DNA of 64,000 bases from Aurelia coerulea (Eukaryota; Cnidaria; Scyphozoa; Semaeostomeae; Ulmaridae). The DNA is taken from positions 7,615,501-7,679,500 of the forward strand of contig CM076945.1 in assembly GCA_039566865.1 (NCBI GenBank), written 5' to 3'. Of this stretch, positions 11,194-63,440 are shown piece by piece; positions within the stretch are counted from its first letter, which is position 1, and each line of letters begins with the position of its first letter. The notes under the pieces are model-generated. The model was not told the origin of the DNA. It ran no database searches and saw only the letters and a program-made list of their open reading frames with translations. Position numbers and translations under genes: made by a program.

Positions 11194-11339
11194 TCAGCTA
11201 TTTTGCGTCCTTATTTTAGGCAAATGTCTTCTATCTTTTGCAGCATTTCTCTTTCTCTTCTTGCTCAAGTACTTTTCCAATTTTCCATCGCTCTTTAAAG
11301 TTTTGTATTGTTCAGCAAGTTCAAGTTTTTTCTTCTCAG
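11194..11339 (-). CDS. RRP36: RRP36 exon 9 (C-terminus and stop)
   Basis: The last exon encodes SEKKKLELAEQYKTLK, a lysine-rich middle and KKRKRNAAKDRRHLP, then ends in TGA at 11196-11194. These are the conserved C-terminal RRP36 blocks. The stop is only 24 bp from the end of a TA-flanked MITE (10590-11170), so most of the 3-prime UTR must read through that element. Confidence 0.93.
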
Positions 11340-14300
11340 CTGTAAAAAATGAAAATGTAATTACGAAAGGAGACTCCTCAAAATATATACCGGTCGAGAG
11401 AGAAAAAACTATAGTTTGTCTCAAATTAGATGTCACCTGCAAATGCCAGCGAATAACAACAATAGAAGTGTTTTGCAAAGGAATTTCGCGTTATCGCAAA
11501 TCTCAGGTGACATCTAATTTCAGACGGACTTTAGGGACGTCCAACAAGCCGTGTTTTGGTGAAAAGCAAGTCAAATCGAGTGTGTGGAAGTTTTCTTTTG
11601 TAGAAGAAAGATTGAATTGGGTATGGAAATTCAGTTTGTTAAAATCGGTAATTTCTTTCCGTATCTATTTGTGATTTTGTGATATGGCTAACACGAACAG
11701 ATTTTGTAATACAATAGCATCAGTTGCTTTTGATTGACACCCAAATTCAAAGCGATTAGCAACTGCAGCCAAAGGAAATTCTCTCGACCAATAATTCGAA
11801 ACAAATGAGGCCACAAAAGTTGCCCCGAAACCAGTAGGGCAAACTCTCGCGTTGTGCAAGCAAAAGATAATTTCTAAGAGAAGTTATGTCCTGTGTGGTA
11901 ATTGCTTCATTTAAGCCCTAAACATGCGAGAATTGTAATGCCTTCTGCTCGGCTTCTGAATCAAATAAACAAAATCTGCTATGCAGAACTTTAGATTTAC
12001 CCTTCTTCTTTCGCTACAAGCACCTAGCTTCCCTTAAAAACCACCTTTCGCATGCCCAAGGGGACAAATTGCCCTATTGGTTACGGTTTCGGGGCAGCAT
12101 TTGCGGCCTCGGTTGTTTTGAACTACTGGTTGAGAGAATTCCTTTATCTGCCGTCGCTAATTACTTTGAATTTAGGTGTCAATCAAAAGCAACTGATGCT
12201 ATCGTATTACAAAATCTGTCCTTGTTTAGTATAAGAACGTTCTGCTTCCAAACTATGACAATTGAATAAAGAGTCCCCAATGGGATAAAGAATAAATTAA
12301 AATAGTCGTTTCTTTCATGTTCTAACACAATACATGCCTGGTTTTTATATGTTAGAAATACAGTATGTTTGTCACGCTTTAAAAGTTCACATGTGCATGA
12401 ATGGCAATCTAATTGCGGTCTAGTTTGGGAATCTTGCGAAACAACAGATCACCAATCTTTCAAATGATTCTTTGACGCAGCTTTTATTATATGGTGATCA
12501 AGACCTTCTAATGACTTGAACAGAAATATATTCGAATTAACTTTACGCTCCATCCACCAAACTGGTCGGTTTGATTAAGATCTATTGAGACTTCGCCTAT
12601 GTACTAAGCAACCACCAAGTCCTTTATCGTAAATGTTCCTTTTCTTTGTAAATCCTGTTCACATATGATGTCAGGCTTATCATTTACTTTAAACAACAAG
12701 AATGAGTTGCACTCGTGACATGACATGACATCTTGATGTGAGACAGAATCTAGTATAGTATCCATTAATTTCTAATGGTTCGTAGTGTGACTGTACATAG
12801 CTTAACATTTCGTCACATTCCATCACATAGTTTGCATTATATAATTTAACATAACATTACATTGTTTAACATAATTGTTTATATTGGCCATGGGGTAGTC
12901 ATTGTCTTTCGCTGCCCAAGGTATCGTACCTGTAGTGTCGTATAGTAATTAGAAAGTTACAGTAGAGCGTAAGATATATTTTGGAAATTTTATATTTGAA
13001 TAAAACAAATTAAAAAAAACACCAGTTTACTAAAATCACTCGAAATTGTGGAAGGAGAGACCGATTTGGATCAACAAAATTTCACAGCTAACTTAGCCTT
13101 CCTCTATGCAATGAATTATAAAGAAACGAACTTGCAAAGTAACTGTTTCGATAGAAATTGGCAAACATTCAATGTTTTTCTGACTCACCCGGTGCAAAAG
13201 CAAATGAAATCATGAATGAATCAATTGACAAAAGCTCAATTTTCATTTCTAGGCCCAACCAATTCTGTTCACTTATTGAGATGCCCGGTTTACATACGGT
13301 TGGGAAAAATGACCGGAAAAACTGTGATGGATTAGGTAAAAAGCACATGAACATAAACTTACATTTCTTGAGGAAATACGGTTTTTTGCCTTGCTTTATG
13401 GCTTCCATTTCTTTCTTTTTTATTTCTCGATGTTTTTCTTTTCTATGTTCATCTTCCTTTTCTTTCTTCTCATTCTGTTCCTGAAAATAAAAGAGTTCAT
13501 CAAATAAATGTTTCAATTCTTAATCCAATGCCAGGGTTTCAGAAACATCTCAAAGCCCTGGTCAAACGGTGGCAAAATTTCATTGAGCATTTCTAAGCGT
13601 TGATTAGACTGATGGTAATCGTCTAAGTTTTGCTCCATTGAAATGAATTATTATTTACTGTTATAGTCAAATTCGTTGAAGCGGAATAGATATTGTGGGG
13701 GGTATCGTCGGAGGCAATGGAGCGAAAACAAGGACTCATGTAATAAGTCTAATAATTAATATTCAGGCCCCGTTAACGCTGCTCTCTATTCATACCGAGA
13801 AAGTAAGAAAAAAGTACATACCCTTTGAAACATCGTAACACAAAGACTGTAAAACTGATTTGAAAAATTACAACTCCGTCGCCTAACTGAGGGCTTTGCT
13901 TCATTTTGAGAATCTATTCATAACTTAGAATGCATTGTATCAATCTCAATGGAGAATTCCCGAAAACTAGCTCCTATTGGCTATTCGTAAAACTGGCATA
14001 ATTTGATCAACGTTTCAATAGTTAAAATGGTAAAACAATGTTTTTCTTAGCTCAGGCATTGCATTCTAATGATATGAAAACTCTTGAAATGTTATTGTGT
14101 TTTCCTATCAATGCTGGGCATCAAAAAGCTTAATCTACATGATTGTCAACAAACCATTTTTAGTTATTTTGGGGCATATCAAGAAATAAGACTTTTGACT
14201 AACTCCTGATTTCAGAGGAAATAATGCACCTAAAGTTATGAGAAAAATCTTGAAAATTACGTTGAAGCCTCAGTAAGATAATGGAATTAACGATTTACGG

Positions 14301-17300
14301 ATTGGTAAACCTTTAAGTTTAGTCCCTTGGGAATTTTAGGAATTGTTTTACTTCGCAAAGTTTTCAAACCTCCTCACTCGAAAGTGCAGGTCTTCGCAAA
14401 CAGTGATATGAATTTAGATTTTGCATAAAATGACTGGTCTAACCATCGCCTGTCACAGAATGCACTTTGGTCAGTTTTATGGTCCTATACCTTCTTAATA
14501 TAATTTGATAGAAATAACCTCAAACAGGGGCTATTCCGGAGCGCACTGTTTCATAAGGAACGACTTCTACCGTATTCTGCTTGCAGATTCCTAATCAGAA
14601 GGCATCACAGTTTCATAGGATGCAAAACTTGTTTTGCAAGAAAGATATAAACAAAAAACTTCAAATAATTCTCAAGGGACTGAGCACCCCTTAATTCAAC
14701 AAAATTTCATAATGCTTGAACGATTCAAATTCTGCTCTCAAATCTGTTTTAAATGATACCAAGCATGCAGTGTTTTGCAATATAATGATACTTCTATGAC
14801 CAAACACCATTTTACTCTACATAGTTTTTGCTTGTACTTTAGGTGCAAGGAATTTTCAAACGTTGGAACTTTTCTTAGCGTGCCAAGTATAACAAAAATT
14901 CACCAACCAGTTTTTGAAGTAACTTGTGCAATTCAGCTTTCTTCTCTGCATTTTTCTCCCTTTTTAACCTTTGTCTAACTTCCTGTAAAAAATCCAAACT
15001 GGAAATCAATCTGACCTTCAAACTAACATTCATTAACGATAGCGGATGACTGAGAAAAAAGGCACGGCATTTGAAAGGCTACTTTCCCCTGAATATCACA
15101 ACAACAACATTTTCTATCATCTCGTTGAATAGCCAACAGTTTATTCAAATCAGTTGAAGGAATCTTCATCGCTGAAATCATCGGCCACTTTCTTTCCAAA
15201 ATTTGACGGATATTCCGGAGAACACCCCCCTGAAAAAACAATCAACAGTGGCTTAAAATCGAAACCGAATTCCCCACGATTTCGGCCTTACAGCGAGGAC
15301 TTGCCTTGCTTTAGCACGTGTTTTCTTTTGGGAGGATGAACAAGTATTTTGCATTAGTAAAAGAAAATTAGTTAAAAGGATTCCATTCCCCCCAAGAAAA
15401 TATAAATTTCATTGACGTTAGGATAATGACGTTAGAATAAGAATTCAATTTACGGTATAAATGAAATTGCTGGGATTAGGCACTTGTCGAAATTGCGACT
15501 AAAGTTTAGTGGACTAAATGAGCATAGATTCAGACATAACTTTGACTGTCTCAATCCTGTCTGCCGGTGTGGTACTGCTGATGAAGATAGTGAGCAGGAG
15601 TGAGCATTTCCTCCTGCACTGCCATTTTTTCGAAGAAGCACGAAGAGATCTTCTGGCAGCTTATCAGATGTTCCTGGGTTAGATATAGTTGGATTGGACA
15701 CACAATCCTTATGCCATTTAATCTTATTTGGAAATGCAGACCTAACCCTAATTACAAATAGGATGATTATGGAAGCAACAATTACTTACATCAAGGCAAC
15801 GAAGAGATTCGATTGAAGCGTAAACAAAGCAGCAGCATCCCCCCCCCCCCCTCCCAAATATCCTTTTGAGTGATTTTGGTAGTTTTTGTAGAAAATTCTG
15901 TCTCTCTTTTGATGTTAGGCGATAGACAACTGTAAATTTTTATCTTAGGGTGCGGGGTGGTGGGTGGATGGGGTCCTGCTGTGTGGATGGGCGGCTGCTG
16001 ACCTTTAGTTTCATGTGTTATCCCGGTGGGGGTGGCACGTGTGGCGATGGGCGGCGGCTGTTTGTCCGCGCGTAGGGCCCTCTGTTAACTGCCTTGCATC
16101 TATTTTCTCCCAAATTATAAAATGTTTTGATATCATTGCCTGACATCAAATGTGAGACAGACATTAACTTTTTCTTTTAGTTTGTTGTTTTTTCTTTCAG
16201 TATATTGTAATTTTTGAATTGTAAGTGCCTTTCATGGTGGGAACTCCGATGACCTAGTGTCTATTCCCGCCATGATAGGCACAGTATATGTACTTGTTGA
16301 GTTTGTATATTTTAATTGATTATATAAAAAAAAGAAAAAAAAAAAGGAAATCGACGAATTTTTGGTTGTTCTATTCACTTGTTTTGTGCAGGTTTTTGAA
16401 GGGGGCTTTCTGCACAAAATCTCCTTTAGCCACGGGAAGGAATGACCGATTAAAGCTGAGTAAATTTCTAAATCTAATTGAAAATATTGGCTTTGAAAAA
16501 AGGCATTTTTCAACATTATTGCTTTGATATCCAGGGCTATTTCTTTGTTCTATTCAAAGTCATATATTCGGTGACTTTAATTAATATGACTTAGGGATAG
16601 AATTCGTCGAATTCTATTTTGATATGGCTTAGCTCATTTATCTACCAAAAATGTGCTTTTTTGGCCAGATGTGTTGTTCACACGACTGCAAAGTGAATAT
16701 GTCAATCATACATGTAGTTAGGAACAAAAAGCCTTCAAAAGAATATTAGTAGAAGACAACGACAGACTCGGATCCATTAAAATAATGTTTTCGCTTCTTC
16801 CAAACGGGGATTAATTCTTGCGAATTTATGAGAGGCGGTATTGACACGACTCCAAAGTGAGTGCGCCAAGATCAGACATATGGTCGGGAACTAAAAGCCC
16901 TCAAAATAATATAAGTAGAAGGCAATGACAGAGGCTGATCGCTTTAAATAAAGTTTTCGCTTCTTCCACGCGGGGATTAACTGTAGATAATTATGAGAGG
17001 CGGTATTGAAACGACTGCAAACTGAGTGCGCCAAAATCAGACATATAGTCGGGAACTAAGAGCCTTCAAAATAATATAAGTAGAAGGCAATGACAGAGGC
17101 TGATCGCTTTAAATAAAGTTTTCGCTTCTTCCACGCGGGGATTAACTGTAGATAATTATGAGAGGCGGTATTGACACGACTGCAAAGTGAGGGCGCCAAG
17201 ATCAGACATATAGTCGGGAACTAAGAGCCTTCAAAATAATATAAGTAGAAGGCAATGACAGAGGCTGATCGCTTTAAATAATGTTGCCACGACTGCAAAG

Positions 17301-20300
17301 TGACTGCGCCAAAATCAGACAGAAATTCGAAAATATACTGGGGGAGTAAAAAAAGAATCCCCGTTTGAAAGGCCACAGCTCCACAGTTCCTTACTGGATA
17401 TCAAGACGAAAATATATAATTTAATGGTTGACATGTTCAACTCTACTTTAAAATTTACCTGACTGAAATCGGCCACTACGTTCTGAAATTATAAAGGATT
17501 TTCTCGAGAATGCCTCTTCAAGAAACCTTCAAAACGTGCCCAAAATCAAGAGCAAATTTCCCCAACATTTCTGCCCTACACGGGCCTTAAAGCAATGACT
17601 TCTGCACGCTTTAGCACGTGCTATCCTCTTGGGAGGATAAACAAGTTATCCTTCGGTATGAACAGCCTATTCAGGAGGATTCCATTCTCCTAAGAGGACA
17701 AAATACATGAATACATATGAGTGTCATAATTTTTTATGCAGGAAAACCAAGGAAATTTTGCTCATCGTTTTCATTCGTTTTTGCAGGTTTTTGGAAGGGG
17801 CTTTCTGCGCAAAATCTCCCACATCCACGTGAAGGAATGGCCGATTAAAGCCGGGTAAATTACTGAAACTAACTTAACATATTGGCAATAAAACAAGACA
17901 GTTTCAATATTATTGCTTTGATATTCAGGAAGCAGTATTTTTTCAAACGGGAATCCTTTTTTGTGACTCACCCCGTAGCACTTAAATGATGTTTCGCTGT
18001 TGCCTCATCAGAAAATTTTTTTCAAAACATCATTTGAGCTCTTTATTTTCGAATTTCCTTATCATTAGAATCACAATCAAACCAAAATCATACATATAGT
18101 CGGGAACTAAAAGCCTTTAAAAGAACATAATAAGCCGAGACCTCTGCGACGAGACCTCTGAACTAAGTTACAATGGAAGGCACTTGGGAGGGGCGAGGAA
18201 GGTCTGCTGCCGTTCAATCAATCAAGCAAGGAACAATTGCATACCTTTTTTTCCTTCTCTTTTATTTCATCCAAGAATGCGTATGATTTCTTGAATAATT
18301 CATGATTTAACTTTCCAGACAGATCATCAAAACGTGGATCCCTCGTCATCTAAGATCAAAAAGTATGTAACTAGCAATAACAATAGTTACTGAGTGCGGC
18401 ACTTTGGGGAATGGAAACAACAAACTTGAACTAACTTCAGCAAAAGGAATAAAAGTTTATAACAGGCCTTTCCAGTTCTGTTGACAGTATTAGTGCCCGT
18501 GCGCTTTCCCCCTATTATCTTTGCACCGCTATTTTATTGAAAGCTTATGTGTGCCTAGATTTCCTTTAATTATTCGATACACCGATTCCTCTGTGCGAAA
18601 AGACATCTGGTCATTAAAGATCTAAATTTAGGAATACTGAGGTCCTTTTGTCTTTGTTTGAGCTCCCTTTGATTTGCGTCCGACAAACTTTCAGTTTTTG
18701 CGTTAGTAACTGCGAGCTTTGATTCGAGTGTAGCTTTAAGCAAAACGATTAAATTGCGAGGTACAAAAGACTACCAGCATTTTTGCACAAAAATTCTTGA
18801 GACTTTCATGAAAATCCTTAAGAAGGGAACAGTGTTACTGTACGAAAGGGCTGTACTGTACTGGGCGAGCCAGAAAAACATGGGTCGTTTAACAAGCCAT
18901 ATTTTTGTCAAAACAGGTCAAATTAGGTGTGTTCAAGTTTTATTTCGCAGACTTATTTTGATTGAATCTGTTACAAAAATTTGGTTAGTTAAAACTAGTC
19001 ATTTATTTCTGTATTCATTTGCGACATTGTGATAAGCTATTTTGGTGAAAAATATCTATAGCATGGGAACTTTCTGCTACCTAATAATGACAGATAATTA
19101 AGAGTCCTCATAGGCTAAACAATGAATTGCAACGATTTATTCTTTTGTACTCTAACACAATGCATGCCAATTCAATTTGTTGGTAGGGAAACAGTATGTT
19201 GGCCATGGTTTAAAAGTTCACAAGTGCATAGACATGAATCTAACCGAAGGCCTATTTTAGGAATCTGGCGAAACACCATTGTACTAATATTGCTGCTAAT
19301 TATGGAAGTTAAAGACCGATTTTGACCAAAAAAATTTCATGGCGTCTATGTTAACTTTGAAACTGTACAATGCAAACTGCATCAATAGATATTGGCAAAC
19401 ATTGTTCATTTTCTCTGATTCACCCCACAGTTTCTACGGATGCAATAATCATCAGAGGCTCTTGCTTACCTTATTTCCACCAGCAACAACTTTTCTAAAC
19501 TTTGAAGGCCTCTGTTTTGATGACATTTCCAGTGGCCTGTTGAACGAAGAAACAACAGTGAACAAGGGTGATCTTTCCACCTGCGGCGGGGGGTATACAA
19601 ATTGTGGATGGACAGGGGTCTGCTACCCAGTCTACAGAAAGCTACCCACTTTCTAATTGTCAAAATTTGCATCTGTAAATCTGCCAAAAAAACATCGCTT
19701 ATAGAACTTTAGGCCAAAAAACCCACCTATATGTGCAGCACATACCTGTGCCTTCTCCCCAATACTTGAATTCAAGCAAAGTGATTTTCCACTGAAAAAT
19801 TATTGAATGAGATTTTAACAGGTTGGAGATTGTTTGACTGCTTATCTTACCTGCTATCTTTTTTCTTTCTGTTTTCAGCAAAAAGATCACTTTTTCCTAT
19901 TTCTTTTTCTTTCTTCTTTGGTGAAGCTCTTTTATCCATTGTAGTCCCAGATGTTGTTTCTTCAGATCTAGTGCAAATTAAAAAAAAGTTATGGCGTTCT
20001 GCACAATACCAGAAACATAGAAAATGTTGAATTCTCTGAGACCTCTTTACCAACAAGAAAACTGATTCAAACGATTGATTCTGTCTGACAAAAGGGCAGA
20101 AAATCACATTGATCTTAAGTTCCAGACCTCGAATCTGGTAAAGAAGAAAGTATATTTCAAAAAATTCTGGCCAATATTTACCAAGAAAAATAGTCACTCA
20201 GAAGCAACAACTCCTGGAAATTGAGGATTACGGAAAAGATAGCGTCAGGGGGCATTTGACCAAGATGCACTGCATTTGACGATCAAATTTCTATAGTTGA

Positions 20301-23253
20301 TTCCATTACAGAATGCAATGCATCTTGGTAAAAAGCCCCCAAAGCCATCTTTTCTTTGATCATCTATTGGATTTGGAAATCAAAGCCTTCACTAAAATCA
20401 TGAAAACTAAAAAGTATACAAAATTTGTAGAAAAATGAAAAACTATCCAAAACAAATTGAGTTCTTTTACCCCATATTTTGCGGATTCAAAATACAATTC
20501 TATGAGTCAAACACATAAGTTTGACACAGTTCTATTTCAAACCATATATCAAAATTAACATGCAAACTTATTTAGCTCAATAAATGGAAAATCTTTGGTA
20601 TCCTCTGGCATTTGATATAAGCAGGGGGGGGGGGGGCTTAATAGAGGGGGTGGCTTATTAAAAAATTTTGGCTCAGAGGGGAGAGGCTTATTAGAGAGGG
20701 GGCTTAATAGAAAGGGAGCTTAATAGAGCTTTTACAGAAAAGCCAATAATCCAAATTAAAATGACATGGTAAAACGAATATATCACGAATAGTGTGACTG
20801 ATGGACTATATCAAATTGTCCTTTCTTCTAGGCAAAGGGTGGATGGTAATAGTGCATTGTTATGTAAAACAATAGTGTATTGTTGGCGTGTTGTATTTCT
20901 CTGTTGCTTGTCTCTATTGTACTGCAATTTTTATGGACGAAACTGTGCTGAAGATTTTTTTAATGATGTTCTATGTGATGTAACAAGCTTCCTGTAGAAA
21001 GGGGTAGCGCTGCAGCTGAACCGGGGGAGCTTCCTTTGAAGACAATTTGCCATACAAGGATTCATCTGTGCCATCATACAAAGACTTTTGATTTTTGTAA
21101 CCACACCCTGACCACGCCCCTATTTGCCAAATAAAAGAATATTCAGTAAAATTAGCACAGAGTATTTGAATAGTTATAATCTTTCATTTGGACAGCACTA
21201 GTAAAAGCTAAAAAAGATTTGAGAATATTACTGTCAGCAAAATGAATAAAAAGACAGCACACTTACTTTGTTTTTCGAAGCTGTGTCTCCATCTTATCTA
21301 AATCTTCAAAGGGTATGTCTGCTAATTCTGAAGGACAAAATAAGGGAACATTTAGCATTCAGAATATTTACATTTGACAGAAAGCTTCAATTCACAGAGC
21401 TAGCAAAATTTTTATAAATCATTTGCAAGCCATGGAAAACATAGCAAATGATTTGTTTCATTTGTAATGAGCATTGCCTTCGCAAAAGAAATAATGCTTA
21501 TGTTCCAATATGTGCAGATGATCATTAGCTAAAAATGTTCTGTTAATTTTCACCAGTGAAATCATGGCACAGCCTCCATGGTAAATGGGTAAACTATAGG
21601 CTCTAACAAACTGATCATTATTGCTAGATTTCGAAATGATCTGACAGTTTGAATTAACAGATGCAGTGTATGTTTTGGCAAGATATCATTTAGCTTTACA
21701 TATGCATCGTTTACCAATCCTGAGAGCCAAGCTAGATTCCCAGCAACTCAGGAACCAAAGCTTACAGGCAATGTGTGAAAAAGAGCAAGGGGTGTATCAC
21801 TCTTTCAAAAAGGCATACGAGATTTTAAAACAATAGGATTTTTTGGATTTTTAACTGATTTTTCTTGAGAACAAAAGGATTTTTGCCAAAGGTGTACAGA
21901 TTTTTATGGAGTGATATGCCCTTCAAAATGATACGCTTTTGCTTTCAAACATAAAATAAGTTTACAAGGCCCTATCAAAGTTGCTGACATGCAAATGCTT
22001 ATTATAAATATTGTTTTGCATATACCTTTTCTCAGCAAATCCTGCAAATAAAAAGGAACAGTTGAAGTAAAATGACAGTTTCAAAATGATAAACTTAGTT
22101 TTTCACATAAATCTTGTAATTTAATCATTGATACTATCAGCCTTTAAATTAGTAAGGACTGCAGCCCACAGTCATATGATTTAAGGTGTTGTGGTGCTGT
22201 CTTGTAATACTAACTTTGCAGCTAAAACAATCAGGCAGATGGGGTTTGAGCCCCACTAACACTTCTTGAGCATCATAAAAAGGGGTAGAGCAGACTTAAT
22301 CAGCACTTGGCAATGTCTGTGAGATCCCAGTGCTTGACGCTAGAAGGCAAAAAATCACAACTTCACCTCCAACGCAAATCCGTGCTTCTTTTTTAAACTT
22401 AAATCAAGAATGTCTGTATTATTGGTTTCAAGTGATCAATGTGGCTTGCACCACCGTCTTCTGTGGTGTTTGCACTGAAGGAGAAGCATGTTTTGGCAGG
22501 TTTGAGCATGAACATAACTGAGTGCCTTTTTGTTACACATGGTACTGATGCGGTTGAGGTTAAAGGGAATGTCAACATATAAAAGTGGCTCAAGCCACTT
22601 GCGGTCAAACTCTAGCCAATCACCTATCTATCAGTATTTCCTGTTGATTTTGATAAGCTACCCAAATATGGTGCGGCACGTGTCAAGGCCCATCATCTTT
22701 GCACGGCAATTTTTATCAAAGGCTTAGATTCCTTTTAACTGCCCTTTGGACTAGGACAAACTGGCTACTCAGTCTTAGACGATTACATTCTTGTGCAACT
22801 CAATAACTCAGTTAGCTACATATGTTGGTTTCTATTCCTTAGTTTTCTATTTGGCTGCTCTTTGGACACTAATTTTGTGATAAATAGATACATATCATCA
22901 TATGTTTGCCAATTTCATGTGTTCCATTTTAAGTCTCTTTTTTGTGTGTAGGTGTGTAGATGGTAGATTGATTGTGGATTGTCATATTAGAATTAAGAAT
23001 TTGTGATAATTCGTTATTGTATTTACAATGATTGAATAAATTGAAACAGAAAATCTTGGCCGGCTGGTTAGACCAGGCCTATCCATTAGTATTAATAATG
23101 ATTGTTGTTGATTGAAGACGTCGAATATACTACTACTGTCCACATTCTCACCATTCTTTCAGTGGAATCAGATTCTTCTCCACTCATACTGCTGCTGTCC
23201 TCGTCATCTGATTCCTCTGACATAGCTCTGTCGTTATATTCTGCTTCATTCAT
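11194..23253 (-). CDS. RRP36: RRP36, ribosomal RNA processing protein 36 (nine exons, complete)
   Basis: Exons join as 23253-23152, 22041-22026, 21327-21267, 19967-19851, 19536-19470, 18349-18245, 14982-14908, 13480-13363 and 11339-11194, giving 807 nt or 268 residues plus stop; human RRP36 is of similar length (about 260). All nine exons join in frame with GT/AG junctions. Recognisable family blocks in order are an acidic Ser/Glu-rich N-terminus (1-34), ELADIPFEDL (about 40-49), RPLEMSSK (99-106), TRDPRFDDLSG (123-133), a long Lys/Glu-rich helix (150-210), GKKPYFLKKSEKK (about 212-224) and the basic tail KRKRNAAKDRRHLP (about 248-261). In yeast and human the protein sits in the nucleolar 90S pre-ribosome/SSU processome and is needed for early cleavages toward 18S rRNA. 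It is divergent from ZFYVE19 and probably shares its promoter. Introns are loaded with MITEs and a retroelement. Confidence 0.93.
11413..11535. mobile_element. short MITE, GTCTCAAATTAGATG group
   Basis: GTCTCAAATTAGATGTCACC (11418) is inverted at GGTGACATCTAATTTCAGAC. It lies in the last intron of RRP36, about 75 bp from the acceptor. A sister copy is at 42484-42600. Confidence 0.7.
11690..12227. mobile_element. foldback element family F
   Basis: Arms of about 165 bp: ACAGATTTTGTAATACAATA and TTGATTGACACCCAAATTC on the left are inverted at the right end (GGTGTCAATCAAAAGC, ACAAAATCTGTCCTTGTT). Sister copy 39769-40251; right half at 1022-1378. Confidence 0.8.
12240..13200. repeat. older repeat (family G), interrupted by a retroelement
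   Basis: Sequence from about 12260 to 12454 and 13020 to 13200 matches 19090-19430 in order (TCTAACACAATGCATGCC-like block, AAAGTTCACA block, then GCAAACATT and a terminal TCTGACTCACCCGGTG). In this copy a family A retroelement has inserted at 12455. Confidence 0.75.
12455..13019 (+). mobile_element. non-LTR retrotransposon family A, 5-prime truncated copy
   Basis: It begins in the end of the ORF2 frame (LSNDSLTQLLLYGDQD, followed by stops) and continues through the family A 3-prime UTR to an A-rich tail ending 13019. CACCA flanks it at 12450-12454 and 13020-13024. Same family as 35486-36235, which retains more of the coding end. Confidence 0.85.
13363..13480 (-). CDS. RRP36: RRP36 exon 8 (GKKPYFLKK block)
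   Basis: The exon is 118 nt and encodes a Lys/Glu-rich helix ending in EAIKQGKKPYFLKK, a conserved RRP36 motif. The acceptor is TTTTCAG and the donor GTAAGT, leaving one base of the Ser codon completed in exon 9. Confidence 0.93.
13500..14900. other. RRP36 intron 7, nothing recognised
   Basis: No repeat with identifiable ends, no open frame of note and no sequence shared with other parts of the window that I could see. Confidence 0.4.
14908..14982 (-). CDS. RRP36: RRP36 exon 7
   Basis: Twenty-five codons of charged helix (EVRQRLKREKNAEKK then LHKLLQKL). The frame of exon 8 requires the GTTGGT donor at 14907 rather than the nearby GTGAAT. The helix matches the coiled segment before the KQGKKP block. 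Confidence 0.87.
15046..16575. mobile_element. MITE family H, split by a retrotransposon
   Basis: The left part (15046-15420) matches 17336-17700 (start GACTGAGAAAAAAGGC, block GCTTTAGCACGTG, then GGATTCCATTC). The right part (16370-16575) matches 17775-17950 (GCAGGTTTTTGAAGG, GGAATGACCGATTAAAGC). Between them sits the insertion 15430-16350. It lies in RRP36 intron 6. Confidence 0.75.
15430..16350 (+). mobile_element. non-LTR retrotransposon 3-prime end with CxC...HC zinc motif
   Basis: Encodes GIRHLSKLRLKFSGLNEHRF, RHNFDCLNPVCRCG, a one-base frameshift, then EHFLLHCHFFEEARRDLL. The C-x-C...EHxLxxC pattern is the C-terminal zinc element of RTE/L2-like ORF2 proteins. A long G-rich 3-prime UTR leads to an A-rich tail at about 16325-16347. 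Confidence 0.8.
16676..17335. repeat. tandem repeat, about 165-bp unit, roughly four copies
   Basis: CACGACTGCAAAGTGA or close variants recur near 16681, 16847, 17012 and 17177, each followed by CAGACATATAGTCGGGAACT, AATATAAGTAGAAGGCAA and TTTTCGCTTCTTCC blocks. A fifth copy is cut short at 17286-17325. A stray piece lies at 18085-18135. Confidence 0.85.
17336..17977. mobile_element. MITE family H, intact copy
   Basis: TACTGGGGGAGTAAAAAAAG at 17336 is inverted at TTTTTTGTGACTCACCCCGTA ending 17977, with AATCCCCGTTTGAAA subterminal blocks on both sides. TA-bounded. Confidence 0.8.
18245..18349 (-). CDS. RRP36: RRP36 exon 6 (DPRFDDLSG block)
   Basis: Exactly 35 codons beginning MTRDPRFDDLSGKL and continuing with an aromatic/acidic helix (YAFLDEIKEKEKK). 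RDPRFDxLSG is the most conserved RRP36 signature. Acceptor TCTTAG, donor GTATGC, phase 0 at both ends. Confidence 0.93.
19090..19430. repeat. repeat family G, uninterrupted copy
   Basis: Collinear with 12260-13200 minus the retroelement. At the equivalent point it reads GAAACACCATTGTAC near 19270, an empty site. Confidence 0.7.
19470..19536 (-). CDS. RRP36: RRP36 exon 5 (RPxEMSSK block)
   Basis: The exon encodes RPLEMSSKQRPSKFRKVV followed by AGGNK. RP-[ML]-E-[MI]-SSK followed by a basic F-R-x-VV is a diagnostic RRP36 signature. Acceptor CAACAG, donor GTAAGC, leaving phase 0. Confidence 0.92.
19851..19967 (-). CDS. RRP36: RRP36 exon 4
   Basis: This 117-nt exon encodes a Ser/Thr- then Lys-rich linker (residues 60-98) containing KRASPKKKEKE and ENRKKKDS. 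It matches the variable basic region before the conserved RPxEMSSK block. The donor is GTAAGA and the exon leaves two bases of an Arg codon. Confidence 0.85.
20233..20354. mobile_element. small foldback element
   Basis: GAAAAGATAGCGTCAGGGGG and CCAAGATGCACTGCATT on the left are inverted on the right (AATGCAATGCATCTTGG, CCCCCAAAGCCATCTTTTC), giving about 45-bp arms and a loop of about 30. Confidence 0.75.
20460..20745. mobile_element. truncated copy of the 1390-1748 MITE
   Basis: Reverse orientation relative to 1390-1748: the GGCTTAATAGAG series and CTTTGGTATCCTCTGGCATT match its TTAAGCCCC series and AATGCCATAGGTTACC. The inner end is missing. Confidence 0.7.
21267..21327 (-). CDS. RRP36: RRP36 exon 3
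   Basis: Acceptor TCCTTCAG and donor GTAAGT flank 61 nt encoding ELADIPFEDLDKMETQLRK and part of a Lys codon. The ELxDxxFEDL block is the first conserved RRP36 motif. Confidence 0.88.
22026..22041 (-). CDS. RRP36: RRP36 exon 2 (16-nt microexon)
   Basis: A 16-nt exon between a TTTGCAG acceptor and a GTATAT donor encodes DLLRK plus one base. It is required to bridge phase 0 of exon 1 and phase 1 of exon 3, and the residues lead directly into the conserved ELADIPFEDL block. The short size makes it the least certain RRP36 exon. Confidence 0.75.
23152..23253 (-). CDS. RRP36: RRP36 exon 1 (start codon exon)
   Basis: This exon encodes residues 1-34: ATG at 23253-23251, then an acidic, Ser-rich stretch containing SEESDDEDSS and GEESDST. 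It ends exactly on a codon before a GTGAGA donor. There is no upstream in-frame alternative needed to match the family; acidic N-termini are usual for RRP36. The start lies 228 bp from the ZFYVE19 start on the other strand. Confidence 0.88.
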
Positions 23254-23481
23254 TTTATCCAACGTTTATTTTGCAAACTAAATTGGACAACACGACCACA
23301 CTACTTCAATTGATGAAAAATAATTGCAGACATCATTACGTTGCTGTTGTTGCTTATTCGAATGCCATTATCAATTGGTCTCTGTTTCAGTCCGCGGGCT
23401 ACTCACACCGGCCACCAAATCATTATTATTATCAAATCAATGTCGTTGAAGCTAAATAAAGCTGAGAAAGCGTTCAAAATA
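23254..23481. promoter_or_regulatory. shared bidirectional promoter of RRP36 and ZFYVE19
   Basis: The 228 bp between the two divergent start codons must hold both core promoters and both 5-prime UTRs. There is no clear TATA box for either gene. Two ATTGG (inverted CCAAT) boxes lie at 23282-23286 and 23374-23378, a spacing typical of NF-Y-type bidirectional promoters, and a short GC-rich patch is near 23390-23405 (CCGCGGGC). No MITE is recognised here, in contrast to all surrounding DNA. Confidence 0.7.
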
Positions 23482-23532
23482 ATGTCAATCTGTTTTGGTT
23501 GTGGCTCAAAGTTTGGATTATTTAAGAGAGAG
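23482..23532 (+). CDS. ZFYVE19: ZFYVE19 exon 1 (first FYVE CxxC)
   Basis: Encodes [17 protein letters not shown] with the first zinc pair C4/C7; the family has M-x-x-x-C-Y-G-C at the same point. An in-frame ATG 42 nt upstream (23440) could add 14 residues, but the family starts at or near the ATG chosen. Donor GTTTGT, phase 0. Confidence 0.9.
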
Positions 23533-26500
23533 GTTTGTTTATTAGAATATTATATGTCAATGACAATGAATGTTCAAATCAAATTGATATTTTGGTTGGT
23601 ATGGGTTTTTGATGGTGATTGGCCTACCTAAACAGAGGCCTAGGCCTAGCCTATGCTACCTATATAAACCAGGGTGGAAAGTTCGTTTTTGCTACGCCAA
23701 GTCTACGCCAAAGGTGTACGCCTATTGTTTTACCATTGTCCTTGATGCTGCTCCACGCCAAAGATATTTGGCGTAACATACATTTATAAATCATTCATGG
23801 CCTGAGAGATGAGCCTTCCTTGGAGTTTTTCACCATTTCGTAGAGTAAGAGAAAAAGAAAGGAAGGGCCTAATATTAATAAGGTCAAAGACTGCTAATTA
23901 AAATTAAGCTAATTAAAACCGGCGATGTCATGTTAACCTTATCCTTTGTTATATGAATTTGTTATATTAAATACACATATGTGATAATTACCCCATTTAT
24001 CATTGAAAGAGGGCCGATTCCCCATACCCCTATTATGGAAAGAAAGGCCTCTACACCGGATATGTCCGGTGCACGTGCACAGAGCACTTAGTTTCTATTG
24101 TTTTAATTGTTTTATCGGTGCAATGTGTCCGGCACACAAAATTTCACTTTCCATACCTCGGTCGATTCAGGTACTTTCAGGTATTCGGAAACAGAGAAGA
24201 GGGATTTTTGCAACAATTTGAAAAAGGAAAGCCCACGATACCAGCGTCGATTGTTGGATCTGAAGATGCTTGCGGTGATGAATGAATGAATAAGTTTGAA
24301 CGCAGAAACACCGCAATAAGACAAAAAACAACAGCAAATATGATTGAATTTATTTTATACAAATATTTCGTCCTGCCATGCAGGACTCCTTCAGGGCTGT
24401 AATGTGACAGTTACAATAAGAACTTAAATATTTACCATTCTTGCAACACTTTGTTTTAAAACTTTCAGTTTTGAAAAGTCCTTTGTTTTGAAAAAAGCGA
24501 CTGTTTGGAGTGTACAATTCATCAAAATGCAGCAAAACAGTGTTGATTTTTTCAGCTGCAAAGCAGCAGTGACACAATGGGCACACTGATTTCCCTGTTT
24601 TTGATTAATTTCAACAAATTTTAGATCTCTGCCCAGCTTTTTTAAATCCCTATTTTTGCCACTTTGCCATGTAGATGAAAAATAGCAATAAATGATATTG
24701 TAGCTAAGCGGTTAAGCTACCAAGCAACATTTGAATTGCTGATTTCTGTTGATTACTCTGTTATGCGTAAAAGTTTTCTTAAAATCTAAGATCTAAAAAT
24801 CTGAGGCCCTGTTTACACTGCTCCATCTCTTTTTACAACTAAACAAAGTGACAAACCTCTGTTTTTGTGAAAAGTCTTCTAGAAAAAGAGTCGACGTGAA
24901 CTCACAATAAATGGAGGTTTTTGAAAACGCTGAACATTCAACAATGATTTTCACAAAACCGGAGCAATGTGAACACACAAAAACGGATATTGTTGGCTCT
25001 GTATTTACAACCAGGAGGGTTAATAATCATTGTACAAACACGGAGGAATGAGAACAGGTAGCTTGGATGCATCGAAAACAGATGATTACAAAAATGGAGC
25101 AGTATATATTGGGGCATGCCCTTACACCAAAATATGAAGACTCATCTACATGGTGATATATTTGTTCATGAACATCCTTCAACTGCAAAATTGAAATCAG
25201 TATATTTCCACAGGCCCCTGTGCAATGACTGACAAAGATATGCACTTTTCATTCCAGCATTCATGCAAGAGTTGTGGCAGAGTCCATTGCAGTAAATGCC
25301 TTCCAAACAAATTTCTGCTGCCCACTTCTACTGTTGAACAGGATGTTTGCAACAGATGCTTTGAAGGCTTGAAAAGGTTTGTCCAACAAGCATTTTTCAG
25401 CAAATGATAAAATTTGTAACCACGCCTCAACTAGCCTCACTACACAAGGACCCTCAACTAATTGAAATGAATTGATTGATGTTGTTATTGTCACTCTTCC
25501 ATATCAGTCTATCAATAGCTATAACGTACAAACATATAGTCAGTCTACGCCTCAACCTCAAGCTGTAATGTCTTATGGAACCCTGCCGACTGCCCTAACC
25601 TGGGTAGGGTTCCAGTGGTGTGGTGGCCAGGGGGCCAGGGGGCATGTGCCCCCCCCCCCAGCATTGTGAGAACGAGGGGGCGCCTCCGGCGCCCAAGGTT
25701 TAGGGGGCGCCAAGTGCCTGGAAACTTGCTTCACACTAATTAGATGTGACAGAAAAGGTGTGGGAAATATTTTGCCTCAATTTTTTATTTTGAAGGCGCC
25801 TTTTGAAGATGTTTAGATGGAATCAGAATTGTTTTATTCGATGTGGAATAGATAACTCACTACAAATGCGTTTATGAAGTGTCTAGAGATTGTGCTATCC
25901 CAATTCCAAGGCGTTTTTACTCAAGTGTGAACCAATCCTATGTGGAAAAGTCAGTGTTGTGGCCACGAGAGGTATTCTTTCCACAAGGGGCATTTTCTAA
26001 TGATAAGAAGGGCATGATCTCAAAAATTTTCGCTCGCTCCGCTCGCACAGAGATTTGCTCCCTTCACCAAATGGTACATTTTTGTGTTCCGAAGAGAGTG
26101 CAGAAGAATCATCATCTTTAGTTTCAAAGCATTTTCTAAAGAAGGAACCAGTCTTAAAAGCCTTGACACATTTTATAGGAGACGAGAGACAAAAGTCACA
26201 GTTTTCTAGGGGGCGCCAAAAACAGGTTGTGCCCCCCACAGCCAATTTGGAGCCACCACACCTCTGTAGGGTTCCATAAGATTTGAAGTCTAATGGGAAC
26301 CCTTTCATTTTTCTTTTCAATTGTCTAGACACTATTCAAGTACTCAAAATGTAACACAGGAAAAATAGCCATTACAAAGTACACAAATATGTTGGATTTG
26401 TTTGAAATGCTATGGACTCCTAGACTAAAATATTCAATTGTGAAGGAGGCTGAAGTTTCTTAATTTTTCAATGATCTGAGAGTTGAATTTCTGTTGAAGA

Positions 26501-29500
26501 GTGTCCTATAAACAGAATGTCTTATTGTGATAGCTTTTTTTCTAGAACCCATGCAACCAAGAGTGCCACACCTAAAACTGCAAAGGAAGATTACAATCAA
26601 CAGAGAGTGTGAGTTGCATTTTTACCTTCTCAGGGTGGTTCGAAGTTGTATACTACTGTAGAATGGTGTGATTATGTGTTTTAGGACTTTGGGATTTGTA
26701 TTGGAACTAGATATCCACATTCCATTCTGGTCAATTCAAATTGTAATGGCAAGTAGTGGGCCAGAATTGAATGTGCAATTAATTTTGGGAATTCCTTGGT
26801 CTGATTTTACCATGAGTGATTTTACCAAACAAAAATTTTGTCGTCTAAGTTAGCCTTAACTGATAGATTAACATTTCATTTATAATCCACTGCCCGCCAA
26901 ATGTGTTAACTTTTTTTAATCACACGGTGGTACTTTTGTTGAAATTTGCTCAGTGAGTGAAAACAGAGAGTATCAGAATATCAAAGCAATAATATTGACA
27001 AATGTCTCCTCTATAGCTAACATATTCATTTAATGTTTTAAGAATTTACCTGGCTGAAATTAGTCACTGAATGCTACAGATATCAGTTATTATGTTCTCG
27101 GGACAGTGCCTTCAAAACGCTTCCAGAAATGGCCTAAAATCACGATCAAGTTCCCCTTATGTTTCTGGTACGAACATAACAAAGTTATTGAGGATAACAG
27201 ATGCTAGCACATATAATTGTCATTACTTTAAAGCAGGAAAAGCGACAAAATTTAATGATTATTTTCAAGGATCTTGTGCAGAAAATCTCCCATAATTTCC
27301 AAATGTCCCATCTATTATGAAATTTGTCTGAATTTGATGAGCCACTCTGTTCTGAAATTATTGGGGAATTTCTCACGAAAGCTCCTTCAAGAAACCTTCA
27401 AACGGGCCGAAAATTACAACCAAAGTCCCTCCCTTAGAGCAATGACTTTTACATGCTTTAGCACGTGTTATCCCTTTGGGAGACGCTTTACTCACCAGTT
27501 AGTAACAATGCATTTTCACAGGGATAACATTTTGGTTAGGCATGTCGGTTTTGGTGCATGTTTGGTGGCTTGCTTTATTTGAAACAGGGCCGTAGGAAGC
27601 AGCTTCGGATGGGGGGGGCAATTGTTCTCAAAACAATAGAGAACAATACATCGAAGTTAATGCGTGTGACGTAGCACCATTGTTTTAAGAAATTATTGGG
27701 GGGCTTGAGCCCCCCTGCCCCCCCCCCCCCCCGCTTCCTACGGGCCTGATTTAAAACGAAGCAAGAAGTCTTCCAAGCACCAGTTGGGGCACAAGATGTG
27801 TCATGGATTTGAGACCAAAACTCTGTGGAAATCTTTCAACTTTTAATTAGATTTACCGTTGATAGCATTGACTGATTACATAATCGAAGTTATCACTATA
27901 GCCTGTTTGTGCAAAAAATGCATTTCAATTCAAATAATGTCAAAAGTGTCGTTGTTGTTGTTGATGATGATGATGTTGATGTTGATGTTGCGATAGTTTG
28001 AACTATGTAGTGGGATGAAGCCTCCTTCCTCCATTTCGTTTTAACATCACAGCAAAATGCACCCGACTGCGAAATTTTTTCTTTAACACAGCTTTAAACA
28101 GCCATTGTCACCCAGTATCCTTTGCGGACACACTTCAATTTGACACTAAAAATTTGATATGATCGAGGTGGAAAATTTGGATACAGGAAAGTCAAACTTA
28201 TCGATCTGTTCAAACACTGCACTTTGGACCCGTATTTTGCACTGAGGCTAAATTTTATTTTCAGACTGTCTAAAATTGCAGCAAGCCCGCAAATGGCCCT
28301 GGGTGACAACGGCTCTTTAAGATTCTTTCGCAAAAAAACAGAGAATAACCTCGAGGTTGTTGCTGTAATTTTTGTTGGTCTTTTCATTTTAGCGATTTAC
28401 CAGAGGCACCACCTCCTTATAATGACAAAACCAGCTATTCCAAAGCAGTGAAATCAAACGCTCCACCTGAGATGGATCCAGATGCTCAACTCAGGGAACG
28501 ATTAGCAAACCTACGGCAAAAGGAAAATAAGGGTGAGTTTCACATTTTTTTGCATGGGAAAATCATAATGGTTGAGCCGTGAGTAGTTACACACCACAGT
28601 CATGCTTCAGCTTGTATGCTTTTGCGGAGGAAAATTTATATCATTCTGCGGAGGAGTTATTGAAATGTTAGCTTCTCCGTAGCAGTATACATTTTTTTCC
28701 GCCGCGAAAGTATGAAGCTACCGGCAATCAAGCACAACTTCGGCGTCAAACCACCTATATGGTTGATTCCGTCTATAAACTTCATGTTCCCCAGGACCTC
28801 ATTTTATAAGAAACTGGTACAGGTCTGAAAGAGACCCCTTTTTAACAAAATTAACCAAAAACACCTTCCTGGAACAATCATATCATTTGCAAATGCAAAT
28901 CAAAATGACATGTTTTTACCACAATCATAGAGCTTGTGTCTGAGTAGTTGATCAATAGTGCATGATTTTTGTATCAGAAACTCGAGCGGAGAGCGCGTGG
29001 CCGAGTGGATAAGGCGACTGACTCGTAATCCAAAGGTCAGAACGGCCGAGGTTCGAATCCTGCGCTGGACAGTTTGGTCGCTGTCCATAACTCTAGCCAG
29101 GGTCGACCAGAGCCATGTGAGGGAAATCTGGTAGCTGCGGCGGGTTGATGGTAAACATCCGTGGCCCCTGCTGGAAATAAGTCTCTCTCAGACTTTCGCA
29201 GGCTAGCCACGTTAAATATGATTACCTACCTACCTACCTACCTACCTACCTACCTACCTACCTACCTACCTACCTACCTACCTACCTACCTACCTACCTA
29301 CCTACCTACCTACCTACCTACCTACCTACCTACCTACCTACCTAACTCTTCCCTGATTTGAATTTTACCTCATTTTATAAGAAACATGTCAGGCCTGAAA
29401 TTGAAAAAGTTGTTTCTTATATGCGGGACACTACTGTAACTCAAGCTTACTGATTAACCCAATTGAGATGAATTGCTACCGATGAATTCGTTACTGTAGT

Positions 29501-32500
29501 GCAGTCACCTCGCTCTACTTCATGAAATGAAGTGAAGAAATATGAAATGAAATGACGAAATTTACGCAGCTGATTAGGCAACTTATTGGACACCACTTAT
29601 TCCGAACACAAATCCGTCTTTTTAATAAAACACGTGGCGGTGATATTTGTCTCTTAGATAACCGACAAAAGATCTTCATTGCCGTTTCAAACCGTCTTTC
29701 TTTTGGGGAGTGGACCACGTTGTCGTTTTACCGAAATCTGTTTAATGCAGGAGTTACGGTGAAATAGTTTCTCCGAAAACAGTTGAGGAGTGCTTCAGAA
29801 GAGCCCGAAATTCTCTCATCCAATGAATATTCTATTAGCAGTGTAATAGAAGAAAGCTAAGATGCCCTTATTCGGCTCAAAAATTGAAAGAGTGATATTA
29901 ATCATTCTTTAGCCTTAACATCCACCTTACGCAAAGTTCCTTCTCGCAAAAATTCTTGTAAAGCGATTACACTGGGAAATGTTTCAATATTTGCTGGATT
30001 ATGTGTCGTCAGAAATGTTTTTGGCCCTAGGATACAGCTTCGGCTCCATTTTATCGATGTTCTCAGCATAACTTTCGATCAATCTCGTTTCAAACAACAT
30101 GCCAAGACTTTATGCTAACTGCACGGATTTTGTGATCTGTTTTAGTTTTCTGTTAGGCCATTTCTGCACAATATTTAAACTAGCCTGATGAGATAAATAT
30201 CACCTAAAGCCTGTGGGATAAATATATCCAAAGCCTATGTGATAAATATTAACCGAGATTTTCACTCGATCTACGCTACGAGGCAATGTAAAGATATCCA
30301 AATCCCTAGTTAGTTATGGGACTGTATTTGCAAAAAAAGCTTTCATTGCGCAGCTCTCAAAGTCATGGTAGGATAGAACTGACGAAATTCGTGAGCTACC
30401 GACACTTAATCGTTTTAATAAAACTAATTAGAAAAAGCACTAACTTTCAAATTCAAATTTCTTGGCTTGCACTCACTCGATTTCATGATCTTTGCTTTGT
30501 TTGACAGATTAAACCTTGAAAAATATGCAGTGAAAAGGTCGATTGAAAGTTTGATCTTGGATGTGCAAATTTTGCGAATTCATAATGGTAACGAAATGTT
30601 GAAAAGCTAAAAGCGAATCACGGAATACTTCTTGAACATCAACAAGAAAAAATCGTATGTTTCACTATTGCCAAATCAAGTTTATTGGCAACACTGTTGC
30701 GGAAGGGCTAAAAAGAGTAAGCTCTCAAATATTTTTTGGCGAATTTTTCACAGTTTCTGGAGATTTTTGATATGGATTGTTGTTATCTCGGCTCAATAGA
30801 GGCTCGATTCGTGCAATCTTCTTTAAAGCTTTGATGGCTGTGCTGTTTATCGATAGCGATAACCACGATATTGTAATCAGTCTACAGGGGGTATTTATTC
30901 ACAGACAATCTTTCCCTATAAACAAACAAACCAAGGGCGATATGAAATGCGCAAGTTCGTTTCAATATTGATTTAGGCCCGATTGGTAAGCATGTGTAGA
31001 TTCTTAGGCCCAATTTGCTCACTCACATGTATCGGTGCTTGTTTCTCGTTTGGTTTCCTACGAGAAATTGTTCATATCTTACTGGCAGCACCTCTAAACT
31101 TTTCATGGCATTTATTGTCTTTACAGCTCTGTAAATATAATCTTTTCTGCTTTTTCCCCTTGCAGCGATTTTTTTTATCTTCAAGGGAACTGCGCATTGG
31201 TTTATCCTCGCATTTCATATCGCCCTTGAGCAAACTATATTTCCTTAATATTTATCGCTACTTTTTCATCATTCTTAGATGACACTGTCGCACACACTGA
31301 AGAAAACATAGATGACAGATTCGAGAAATTAACAGGCAGGCAAGCAACAAGTGCTCAGAAGAGTAATGTACGAATACTTTTCTATACGTATACTTTTCTA
31401 ATTACTATGCGCATACTACCTGGCTTTGTGTTGTACAGGAAAATATAACGCCCGAGGTCTTAAAAGTACAGACCGAGCTTGCGAGATCTGTGCAATAAGA
31501 CCGAGGGCTTTATATTTTCCTGTACAACACAAAACCGGTTAGTATGAGTTTTATTACCTGATAGCTTCTAATTTTGACTTATATCATTTGGTCAAACGCA
31601 TTTTGTTACTGTTATGTCGCTCTAGTTTACTGAAAATCTCACAGGCCTAAATCAGTTGCTGTGGTGACAGAAACGCGTCCTTGTATCGTATTATACAAGG
31701 CTGCGGGAAAACCGCGGGAAGTGTGCGATTAACCAATAGGATTGGCGGGATTCTTGTATTGCCTCGTTTTTGAAACGTCAGTCAGGCAATAATATACAAG
31801 ACAAGACAATGACTACCCTGTGGCCAATACATAAAGACACACAACGTTAAACTATATACAACTACACTACGAACCATTACATATATTTGTACTCCCAGAG
31901 GAGTATATCATTGACTAGTGCAGCCATACAGTCGGCGCTCGAAAGTTTTAATGCCTTCATTACTAAGGTACCAATTTTACACCCTGGGGACGTGGTGTGC
32001 CTACGATACCAGGAGGTCACCCATCCTGGTAATGATCTTCCCTGCCATGTTTAACTTCGGTGATCAAATGGGAAACGGTATACAGTAAAAACCTGCATGT
32101 AAGAACCTACAATTTTGCAAATCAGCCTAACTAGGTTCTTATGTTTTCGGTATTTAGTGGGAAATGAGGCTTGTCAGGTTCTTAAATTGGTTCTTATTTC
32201 ATTCAGGGCTTTCAGGAATTTCTTTTCTTCAGATTCAAACTTCAGGCCTATTATTTACTGTCATTTCACATCACTTGAGTTTATGAGGTATTATTCCCAA
32301 CAGCAATTTGTGGAGGAATCAGAAGTGTTTATATAATCCAGAGAAAAGCTTTCAAAAGATGCTTATCGGGTAATATAAACATGTTTGATTCTTCCACAAA
32401 CTTCCGTTGTGAGTAAGACCCCATGATCTCTATTTCAATTCCAGATTAAATGGGTTCTTATACAATTTGGGGTCTAATTGCAAATTGCAAAATTTCAGCC

Positions 32501-32934
32501 TGCAGGTTCTTAATCCACTAGGTTCTTATACGCGGGTTTTTACTGTATTCATTGTGGCAAATCGTAGTATTTAAGATTTGTTGAAGCCTGGTAGGATCTT
32601 TTCAATGTCGAGCTCTCTTTTTTCTCAGAACAGATTCTTACACCGCAACCAAAACTGTCTGAACAAGAAGAAATTAATCGACTTATGGAGGCTGCTTTAG
32701 CTGAGGCAAAGTTGGAGAACGATGATGATGATTTCGGTAATGGAAAAGCGACTGCAGGTGAAGATTTAGAAAACCGGCTGCTTAAACTGAAAGGCATCGA
32801 CCCGGGTAAGCATTTTATTTAGTCCGTGATGGATTTGAATATTTTGTAATTGCTTTCATAGTGATATCCTGAGGGGAAGATTCAATTCAATTCAAACTTT
32901 GCTTATAAGAATACTACCTGGTTATTATTATTAT

Positions 32935-45118: not shown

Positions 45119-45459
45119 GTATGTTCTTGTAGACTTATGATGTTCGTCCTAGTTACTGCTACTAATACCTTAACTATTGCCCACCTCGTCGCTCAAACAA
45201 GTACTCATAGTTTTACAGACACAAGAACTGAAATTTTTTTAGTGCGAGTCTAGAAGGTTTGATACTGATACCATTTTCTTAAAATCATCACTGTCCATTT
45301 CAGTATTTTCAGGGCTCCCAGCTCTGTTTCTGCCCCACGCCCCGTCAAGTATCTAAAATAGGAATAATGATGATGATTATAATATTTTATAGCGTCTCTA
45401 TTGGGGAGACCTCCATTTCCGCGAGGTGCTCTCTGTGGAGCATGGGTTCCCTGTCATTA

Positions 45460-46853: not shown

Positions 46854-46859
46854 TTATTT

Positions 46860-48460: not shown

Positions 48461-48469
48461 AACGAGGAT

Positions 48470-55990: not shown

Positions 55991-56044
55991 TGATTTATGA
56001 AGTTATTTGTCTAGTTTTTTTGACAATTTTTCTTTTCCTCACAC

Positions 56045-63400: not shown

Positions 63401-63440
63401 GAGAAGGAGAAGAAAAACTTTTCCCCTTTATCATTTCTCT

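What the first reader, a model, noticed from the sequence alone, without database searches (positions are those of the whole stretch)
23152..23532. Head-to-head RRP36 and ZFYVE19 with only 228 bp between start codons
An SSU-processome factor and an abscission-checkpoint protein share one compact promoter with two inverted CCAAT boxes. It is the only MITE-free stretch of this size around, which suggests selection. In human the two genes are on different chromosomes (6 and 15), so the pairing is lineage-specific. Shared control would couple ribosome production to a cytokinesis checkpoint; that is speculation.
Basis: partly seen in the sequence, partly recalled or inferred. Interest (0 to 1): 0.75.

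Follow-up and report, generated by a model that had tools for sequence, protein, structure and literature searches.

The report
Jellyfish head-to-head RRP36–ZFYVE19 gene pair
In what is most likely a moon-jelly genome, two everyday cell-maintenance genes start back to back 228 bases apart, an arrangement that is common in animal genomes and not by itself evidence that the two jobs are linked.

Summary
The gene arrangement is real. RRP36 runs on the minus strand from 23253 to 11194 (9 exons, 268 aa, Pfam RRP36 E 5.4e-48). ZFYVE19/ANCHR runs on the plus strand from 23482 (FYVE finger, ANCHR B-box; model incomplete). The genome is most likely Aurelia.

The added arguments are weaker. Two or more same-strand CCAAT cores occur in 3.4% of 228-bp stretches. 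'Only MITE-free stretch' fails within the window: the gap lies in a 6.1-kb stretch without an in-window repeat copy, one of 29 such stretches of 228 bp or more. 'Lineage-specific' is open: contig lengths suggest one shared chromosome in Xenia, two Branchiostoma entries and Lytechinus, but not in Hydractinia.

Best reading: an ordinary short bidirectional promoter between two housekeeping genes. Coupling of ribosome production to abscission has no support here. Gene order in relatives, transcription starts and expression could not be tested.

The parts
23152..23253 (-). RRP36 coding exon 1 (102 bp, start codon at 23253)
   Evidence: first in-frame Met after a stop; protein matches deposited P0001 at 267 of 268 residues
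22026..22041 (-). RRP36 exon 2, 16-nt microexon
   Evidence: AG/GT flanks, in frame; its residues are present in P0001
21267..21327 (-). RRP36 exon 3
19851..19967 (-). RRP36 exon 4
19470..19536 (-). RRP36 exon 5
18245..18349 (-). RRP36 exon 6 (TRDPRFDDLSG core)
14908..14982 (-). RRP36 exon 7
13363..13480 (-). RRP36 exon 8
11194..11339 (-). RRP36 exon 9 with stop codon
23254..23481 (.). 228-bp gap between start codons: putative shared bidirectional promoter plus both 5' UTRs
   Evidence: no AG in it scores as high as the weakest confirmed acceptor
23282..23286 (-). CCAAT core (ATTGG on +)
   Evidence: weak evidence
23374..23378 (-). CCAAT core (ATTGG on +)
   Evidence: weak evidence
23482..23532 (+). 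ZFYVE19 coding exon 1 ([17 protein letters not shown])
25258..25376 (+). ZFYVE19 exon 2 (rest of FYVE finger)
26546..26608 (+). ZFYVE19 exon 3
   Evidence: no significant profile match of its own
28393..28532 (+). ZFYVE19 exon 4
31279..31367 (+). ZFYVE19 exon 5 (donor uncertain; join to exon 6 out of phase)
32629..32805 (+). ZFYVE19 exon 6
34598..34680 (+). ZFYVE19 exon 7
   Evidence: weak profile match, E 0.09
38129..38194 (+). ORF holding a probable further ZFYVE19 exon ([18 protein letters not shown]); exact exon ends not set
   Evidence: profile match E 0.004; translation
44946..45118 (+). ZFYVE19 exon with ANCHR B-box start; the last exon after it was not found in the window

Best explanation
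The 228-bp gap is an ordinary short bidirectional promoter region: one open stretch of chromatin from which two separate core promoters fire outward, one for RRP36 (18S rRNA processing) and one for ZFYVE19/ANCHR (abscission checkpoint). Shown: two divergent genes with start codons 228 bp apart, RRP36 complete and ZFYVE19 with most exons found. Inferred: both transcription starts lie in the gap, and the two genes are broadly co-active as housekeeping genes. The pairing is probably a by-product of gene reshuffling inside a chromosome block that may already have carried both genes in the ancestor of cnidarians and bilaterians. It is not kept because the two functions need each other.
For: Gene models and distance. 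No AG in the gap, in either direction, scores as high as the weakest confirmed acceptor (best 2.2 and 1.6; confirmed sites 8.1 or more with the same matrix, 3.5 or more when each of the 15 is left out), so the first coding exons are probably first exons. CpG o/e of the gap is 1.22 against 0.73 for the window, 92nd percentile of 228-bp windows. Such pairs are common: 25% of amphioxus neighbouring genes and 12.8% in mouse by CAGE, commonest among ubiquitous promoters (PMC6292497 passages); almost a third of Amphimedon genes (PMC4773876 passages). Partners seldom share function: 35 of 105 human DNA-repair genes have bidirectional promoters and none of the 35 partners acts in repair (PMC3403606 passages); 8.5% of 924 close human divergent pairs were functionally related by GO (PMC2871058 passages). 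Sea anemones keep chromosome content but little longer-range gene order (PMC10719294 passages).
Against: No transcription-start, chromatin or expression data were available. From my recalled motif list the gap holds only short single matches besides the CCAAT cores (GCCAT, two ACGT, one TTCAAA; one E2F form was mistyped there and re-tested without a match). In-frame upstream ATGs and an open frame from 23317 leave the ZFYVE19 start, and so the exact gap, uncertain. The acceptor matrix rests on 15 sites and 716 of 7,421 AGs of the window pass its leave-one-out minimum. Adjacency in other species was not tested. Some papers seen in passages stress functional links between divergent partners (PMC2871058, which also lists fungal divergent pairs of two ribosome-biogenesis genes).
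Confidence: 0.75

Rival explanations
1. An ancient RRP36-ZFYVE19 divergent pair: the two genes were already head to head in the cnidarian-bilaterian ancestor, stayed so in some lineages, and were separated in vertebrates and in at least one hydrozoan.
For: Equal contig lengths for both genes in Xenia (16,714,500), B. lanceolatum (33,141,815), B. floridae x japonicum (33,741,523) and Lytechinus (45,571,165), i.e. 4 of the 5 invertebrate entries in which both listed contigs exceed 10 Mb. Many ancestral bidirectional promoters are reported as disentangled in vertebrates (PMC6292497 passages). Two-gene blocks are not rarer in cnidarians than in other clades (PMC10719294 passages).
Against: Same chromosome is not adjacency. 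Hydractinia has them on contigs of different length (39,956,072 and 32,621,594). A second B. lanceolatum ZFYVE19 entry (P0163) lies on a contig of another length (31,719,604), perhaps another assembly. Xenia chromosomes carry many translocations and fusions, so sharing there may be secondary. Gene order was largely lost even between Nematostella and Scolanthus.
Confidence: 0.12
2. One reading: the shared promoter exists to co-regulate ribosome production and the abscission checkpoint.
For: Short shared gap. Both genes plausibly matter in dividing cells (general knowledge).
Against: No motif or repeat evidence for selection. No co-expression data. Reports that partners seldom share function (PMC3403606 and PMC2871058 passages).
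Confidence: 0.04
3. Transcripts overlap: one gene starts inside or beyond the other gene's first exon, so that the gap is not a clean shared promoter.
For: The frame upstream of the ZFYVE19 start is open from 23317 with ATGs at 23362 and 23440, so a longer 5' end is possible. Between 22900 and 23480 the best donor-like site on the plus strand is at 23066, outside the gap.
Against: No good acceptor in the gap. The nearest relative begins at the 23482-type Met.
Confidence: 0.12

Closest known systems
Bidirectional (divergent, head-to-head) protein-coding gene pairs of animals
   Same: Opposite strands, start codons well under 1 kb apart, genes of housekeeping type.
   Different: Transcription starts not mapped here, so only start-codon distance can be given. 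The gap is AT-rich (36% GC), unlike typical mammalian CpG-island promoters (recalled).
RRP36 (Pfam PF06102), SSU-processome factor
   Same: Near full-profile match, E 5.4e-48, 268 aa; nearest relative with a species name is Rhopilema at 60%.
   Different: Nothing unusual seen apart from a 16-nt microexon.
ZFYVE19 / ANCHR abscission/NoCut checkpoint regulator
   Same: FYVE finger (5.6e-11) and ANCHR-like B-box (1.2e-8); cnidarian relatives so named align.
   Different: The final exon that completes the B-box was not found downstream in the window.

Membership tests
Bidirectional promoter gene pair | Neighbouring genes transcribed divergently from opposite strands | tested here: met
Bidirectional promoter gene pair | Transcription starts less than 1 kb apart (definition in PMC3403606; intergenic region under 1 kb in PMC2871058) | tested here: inconclusive
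   Start codons are 228 bp apart; transcription starts themselves are not available
Bidirectional promoter gene pair | Promoter activity in both directions from the shared DNA | not testable with these tools
   needs a dual reporter or nascent-RNA data
Bidirectional promoter gene pair | Pair kept in relatives (optional, for a conserved pair) | tested here: inconclusive
   Contig lengths suggest a shared chromosome in 4 of 5 invertebrate entries with both contigs above 10 Mb; adjacency not visible
RRP36 | RRP36 domain PF06102 over its profile | tested here: met
   profile positions 2-165 of 165, E 5.4e-48
ZFYVE19/ANCHR | N-terminal FYVE finger | tested here: met
   PF01363, E 5.6e-11, profile positions 9-66 of 67
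ZFYVE19/ANCHR | C-terminal ANCHR-like B-box, complete | tested here: inconclusive
   PF22586 positions 1-25 of 39 matched; last exon not found in 45119-64000

The most novel reading that the evidence does not exclude
RRP36 and ZFYVE19 were a head-to-head pair in the cnidarian-bilaterian ancestor, sharing one promoter that tied 18S rRNA processing to the abscission checkpoint, and vertebrates later separated them.
Probability: 0.08. Interest if true: 0.45.

Novelty: new member of a known kind. Interest (0 to 1): 0.15.

Why it matters
As it stands, it is a tidy example of a compact divergent promoter in a repeat-rich jellyfish genome. It would matter more only if the pair turned out to be adjacent in distant animals, because a pairing kept since the cnidarian-bilaterian split would point to a real constraint on gene order. 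The hint that both genes share a chromosome in a soft coral, amphioxus and a sea urchin makes that a cheap question to settle.

Tried and rejected
Repeat argument: not borne out by self-BLAST of the window. That test detects only elements with two copies in the window; a whole-genome repeat test could not be run because the genome search 'own' did not complete.

CCAAT boxes as strong promoter evidence: rejected after counting all 228-bp windows.

5'-UTR intron in the gap (the candidate tttcag before 23391): scored 2.2 against 8.1 or more for confirmed acceptors with the same matrix and a leave-one-out minimum of 3.5, so not favoured.

Solved structures for RRP36 by sequence (phmmer): no match at E 0.001. 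Prokaryote genome collection for stray jellyfish contigs: 129 stretches matched a pattern, none encoded a relative. ARAGORN scan of the window: no tRNA.

Gene numbers in EukProt names (gene20097-22067_t for RRP36, gene20321-22320_t for ZFYVE19) were looked at for adjacency and set aside, because I do not know whether the numbers follow the chromosome or even that both are one species.

Papers. Searches: RRP36 with ZFYVE19, 0 papers; RRP36 with 'bidirectional promoter', 0; DNAJC17 with ZFYVE19, 6 listed, none opened; 'bidirectional promoter' with jellyfish, 6 listed, none opened; ANCHR terms, 8 listed of 9, none opened, 6 listed, one opened (PMC4773876), 13 listed of 14, one opened (PMC2871058), 4 listed, two opened (PMC10719294, PMC9112765), 4 listed, one opened (PMC6292497). 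PMC3403606 was taken from a reference seen. What I saw of the six opened papers is passages by 'find': PMC4773876, PMC2871058, PMC3403606, PMC10719294, PMC6292497, PMC9112765. No paper was read whole.

Full report
What is there. On the minus strand, nine exons from 23253 to 11194 make an uninterrupted 268-aa protein with GT-AG borders at all eight introns. It matches the Pfam RRP36 domain over profile positions 2-165 of 165 (E 5.4e-48). The protein search lists a deposited 268-aa protein (P0001, 'Seg2116.2 ... GoldUCD') that differs at one residue of 268. The label points to the Aurelia genome of Gold and colleagues. PMC9112765 lists Gold et al. 2018 as Aurelia coerulea (passages), so the window is most likely Aurelia; that is an inference from the name. 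The nearest relative with a species name is Rhopilema at 60%.

On the plus strand, a gene with a FYVE finger (E 5.6e-11) and the ANCHR-like B-box (E 1.2e-8) begins at 23482. A weak match to MDM1 in the same protein stays below Pfam's cut-off. Its first residues, [17 protein letters not shown], align with the first residues of its nearest relative. Eight exons were placed by hand and a profile scan added a probable ninth in the ORF 38129-38194 (E 0.004). The join between exons 5 and 6 is out of phase in my model, so an exon or a splice site there is not resolved, and the last exon was not found. RRP36 is complete, ZFYVE19 is not. No Aurelia-labelled ZFYVE19 protein appeared among the 120 rows shown or.

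The gap. Between the start codons lie 228 bp, 23254-23481. Two in-frame ATGs upstream of the ZFYVE19 start (23362 and 23440) would shrink the gap to 108 or 186 bp. They lack the A at -3, and the relative starts at the later Met, so 228 is the best figure.

Is it more than chance? As gene structure, yes. As a promoter with special features, the evidence is thin. GC is 36%, ordinary for the window (36th percentile). CpG o/e is 1.22, at the 92nd percentile. Two or more CCAAT cores in one orientation occur in 3.4% of windows of this size, and in any orientation in 6.2% (all). The motif list that I scanned is from memory; besides the CCAAT cores it gave only GCCAT, two ACGT and one TTCAAA. No AG in the gap scores like a splice acceptor, which favours first exons that start inside the gap, though the matrix has only 15 sites.

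The repeat argument. Self-BLAST covers 22% of the window with in-window copies. Of 43 stretches without a copy, 29 are 228 bp or longer, and the gap lies in a 6,076-bp one, 20736-26811. Among 16 inverted-repeat pairs found in 19000-29500, MITE-like ones lie inside that stretch (24807-25113, 25571-26281) and outside it (20248-20340, 27578-27755); two pairs with 14-nt arms touch the gap. The claim that this is the only clean stretch around is therefore not supported. A genome-wide test was not possible, because the own-genome search did not complete.

Lineage-specific or old? No eukaryotic gene order was at hand. The protein listings give the length of the longest contig for each cluster of proteins, which can serve as a tag. 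Comparing by eye the 120 rows shown with the 120 rows shown of each, 21 species carry a contig length for both genes; five have equal lengths: Xenia, B. lanceolatum, B. floridae x japonicum, Lytechinus and Sceloporus. Among invertebrates with both contigs above 10 Mb it is 4 of 5 (Hydractinia differs; the two Branchiostoma entries are one genus). Among vertebrates with both above 20 Mb it is 1 of 8. The other eight species have at least one contig shorter than that and were dropped: Actinia, Acanthaster, Lingula, Eleutherodactylus, Phyllobates, Urocolius, Turnix and Cepphus; all eight show different lengths.

Limits of that comparison. A second B. lanceolatum ZFYVE19 entry (P0163) lies on a contig of 31,719,604, perhaps from another assembly. 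One search found 339 hits (with only the 7,985 best-sharing candidates scored), 165 and 157, each listed only to 120, so Rhopilema and Nematostella, whose ZFYVE19 did not appear, stay untested. Equal length is taken as same contig, an inference, and a cluster may hold proteins of more than one species. With 15 chromosome-scale scaffolds in Xenia (PMC10719294 passages), chance sharing in three separate lineages seems unlikely, but the same passages report many translocations and fusions in Xenia. Both genes probably belonged to one ancestral linkage group. That does not show adjacency.

What it most likely does. Published surveys make the ordinary reading the best one. Bidirectional arrangement is found for 25% of amphioxus neighbouring genes and 12.8% in mouse, is commonest among ubiquitous promoters, and was often broken up in vertebrates (PMC6292497 passages). 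Almost a third of Amphimedon genes appear to use such promoters (PMC4773876 passages). Xu et al. report co-expression without shared function and conclude that co-regulation of the partners hardly decides whether pairs persist; they also cite earlier work that claimed functional relevance (PMC3403606 passages). In PMC2871058 8.5% of 924 close human divergent pairs were functionally related by GO, though fungal pairs of two ribosome-biogenesis genes exist (passages). Sea anemones keep chromosome content but little gene order beyond two-gene blocks, which are about as frequent as in other clades (PMC10719294 passages). The step from a shared promoter to a coupling of ribosome production with abscission is not supported by anything seen here.

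Novelty. No paper in the held open-access library holds both gene names or RRP36 with 'bidirectional promoter'. The pair itself may thus be undescribed, but the kind is well known.

Noticed in passing
window 22026-22041 (-): RRP36 exon 2 is a 16-nt microexon, in frame, and its residues are present in the deposited Aurelia-type protein.
   Followed up: partly
window 45119-64000 (+): The last ZFYVE19 exon, which should complete the B-box (REGH... in relatives), was not found by a profile scan of plus-strand ORFs of 12 aa or more; it may lie beyond the window or be missing.
   Followed up: partly
window 5192-5770 (-), 33488-33919 (+), 56876-57355 (-), 59605-61139 (+): ORF pieces that look like LINE-type reverse transcriptase (recognised by eye, not scanned), one of them inside a ZFYVE19 intron.
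   Followed up: no
window 28990-29080: A tRNA-like stretch, SINE-like by eye; ARAGORN calls no tRNA in the window. A long CTAC tandem run follows at about 29222-29345.
   Followed up: no
window 11150-11170 (-): Just after the RRP36 stop codon comes CAGGGTGTCCCAAAAA, like the end of a Tc1/mariner-type element (recalled resemblance).
   Followed up: no
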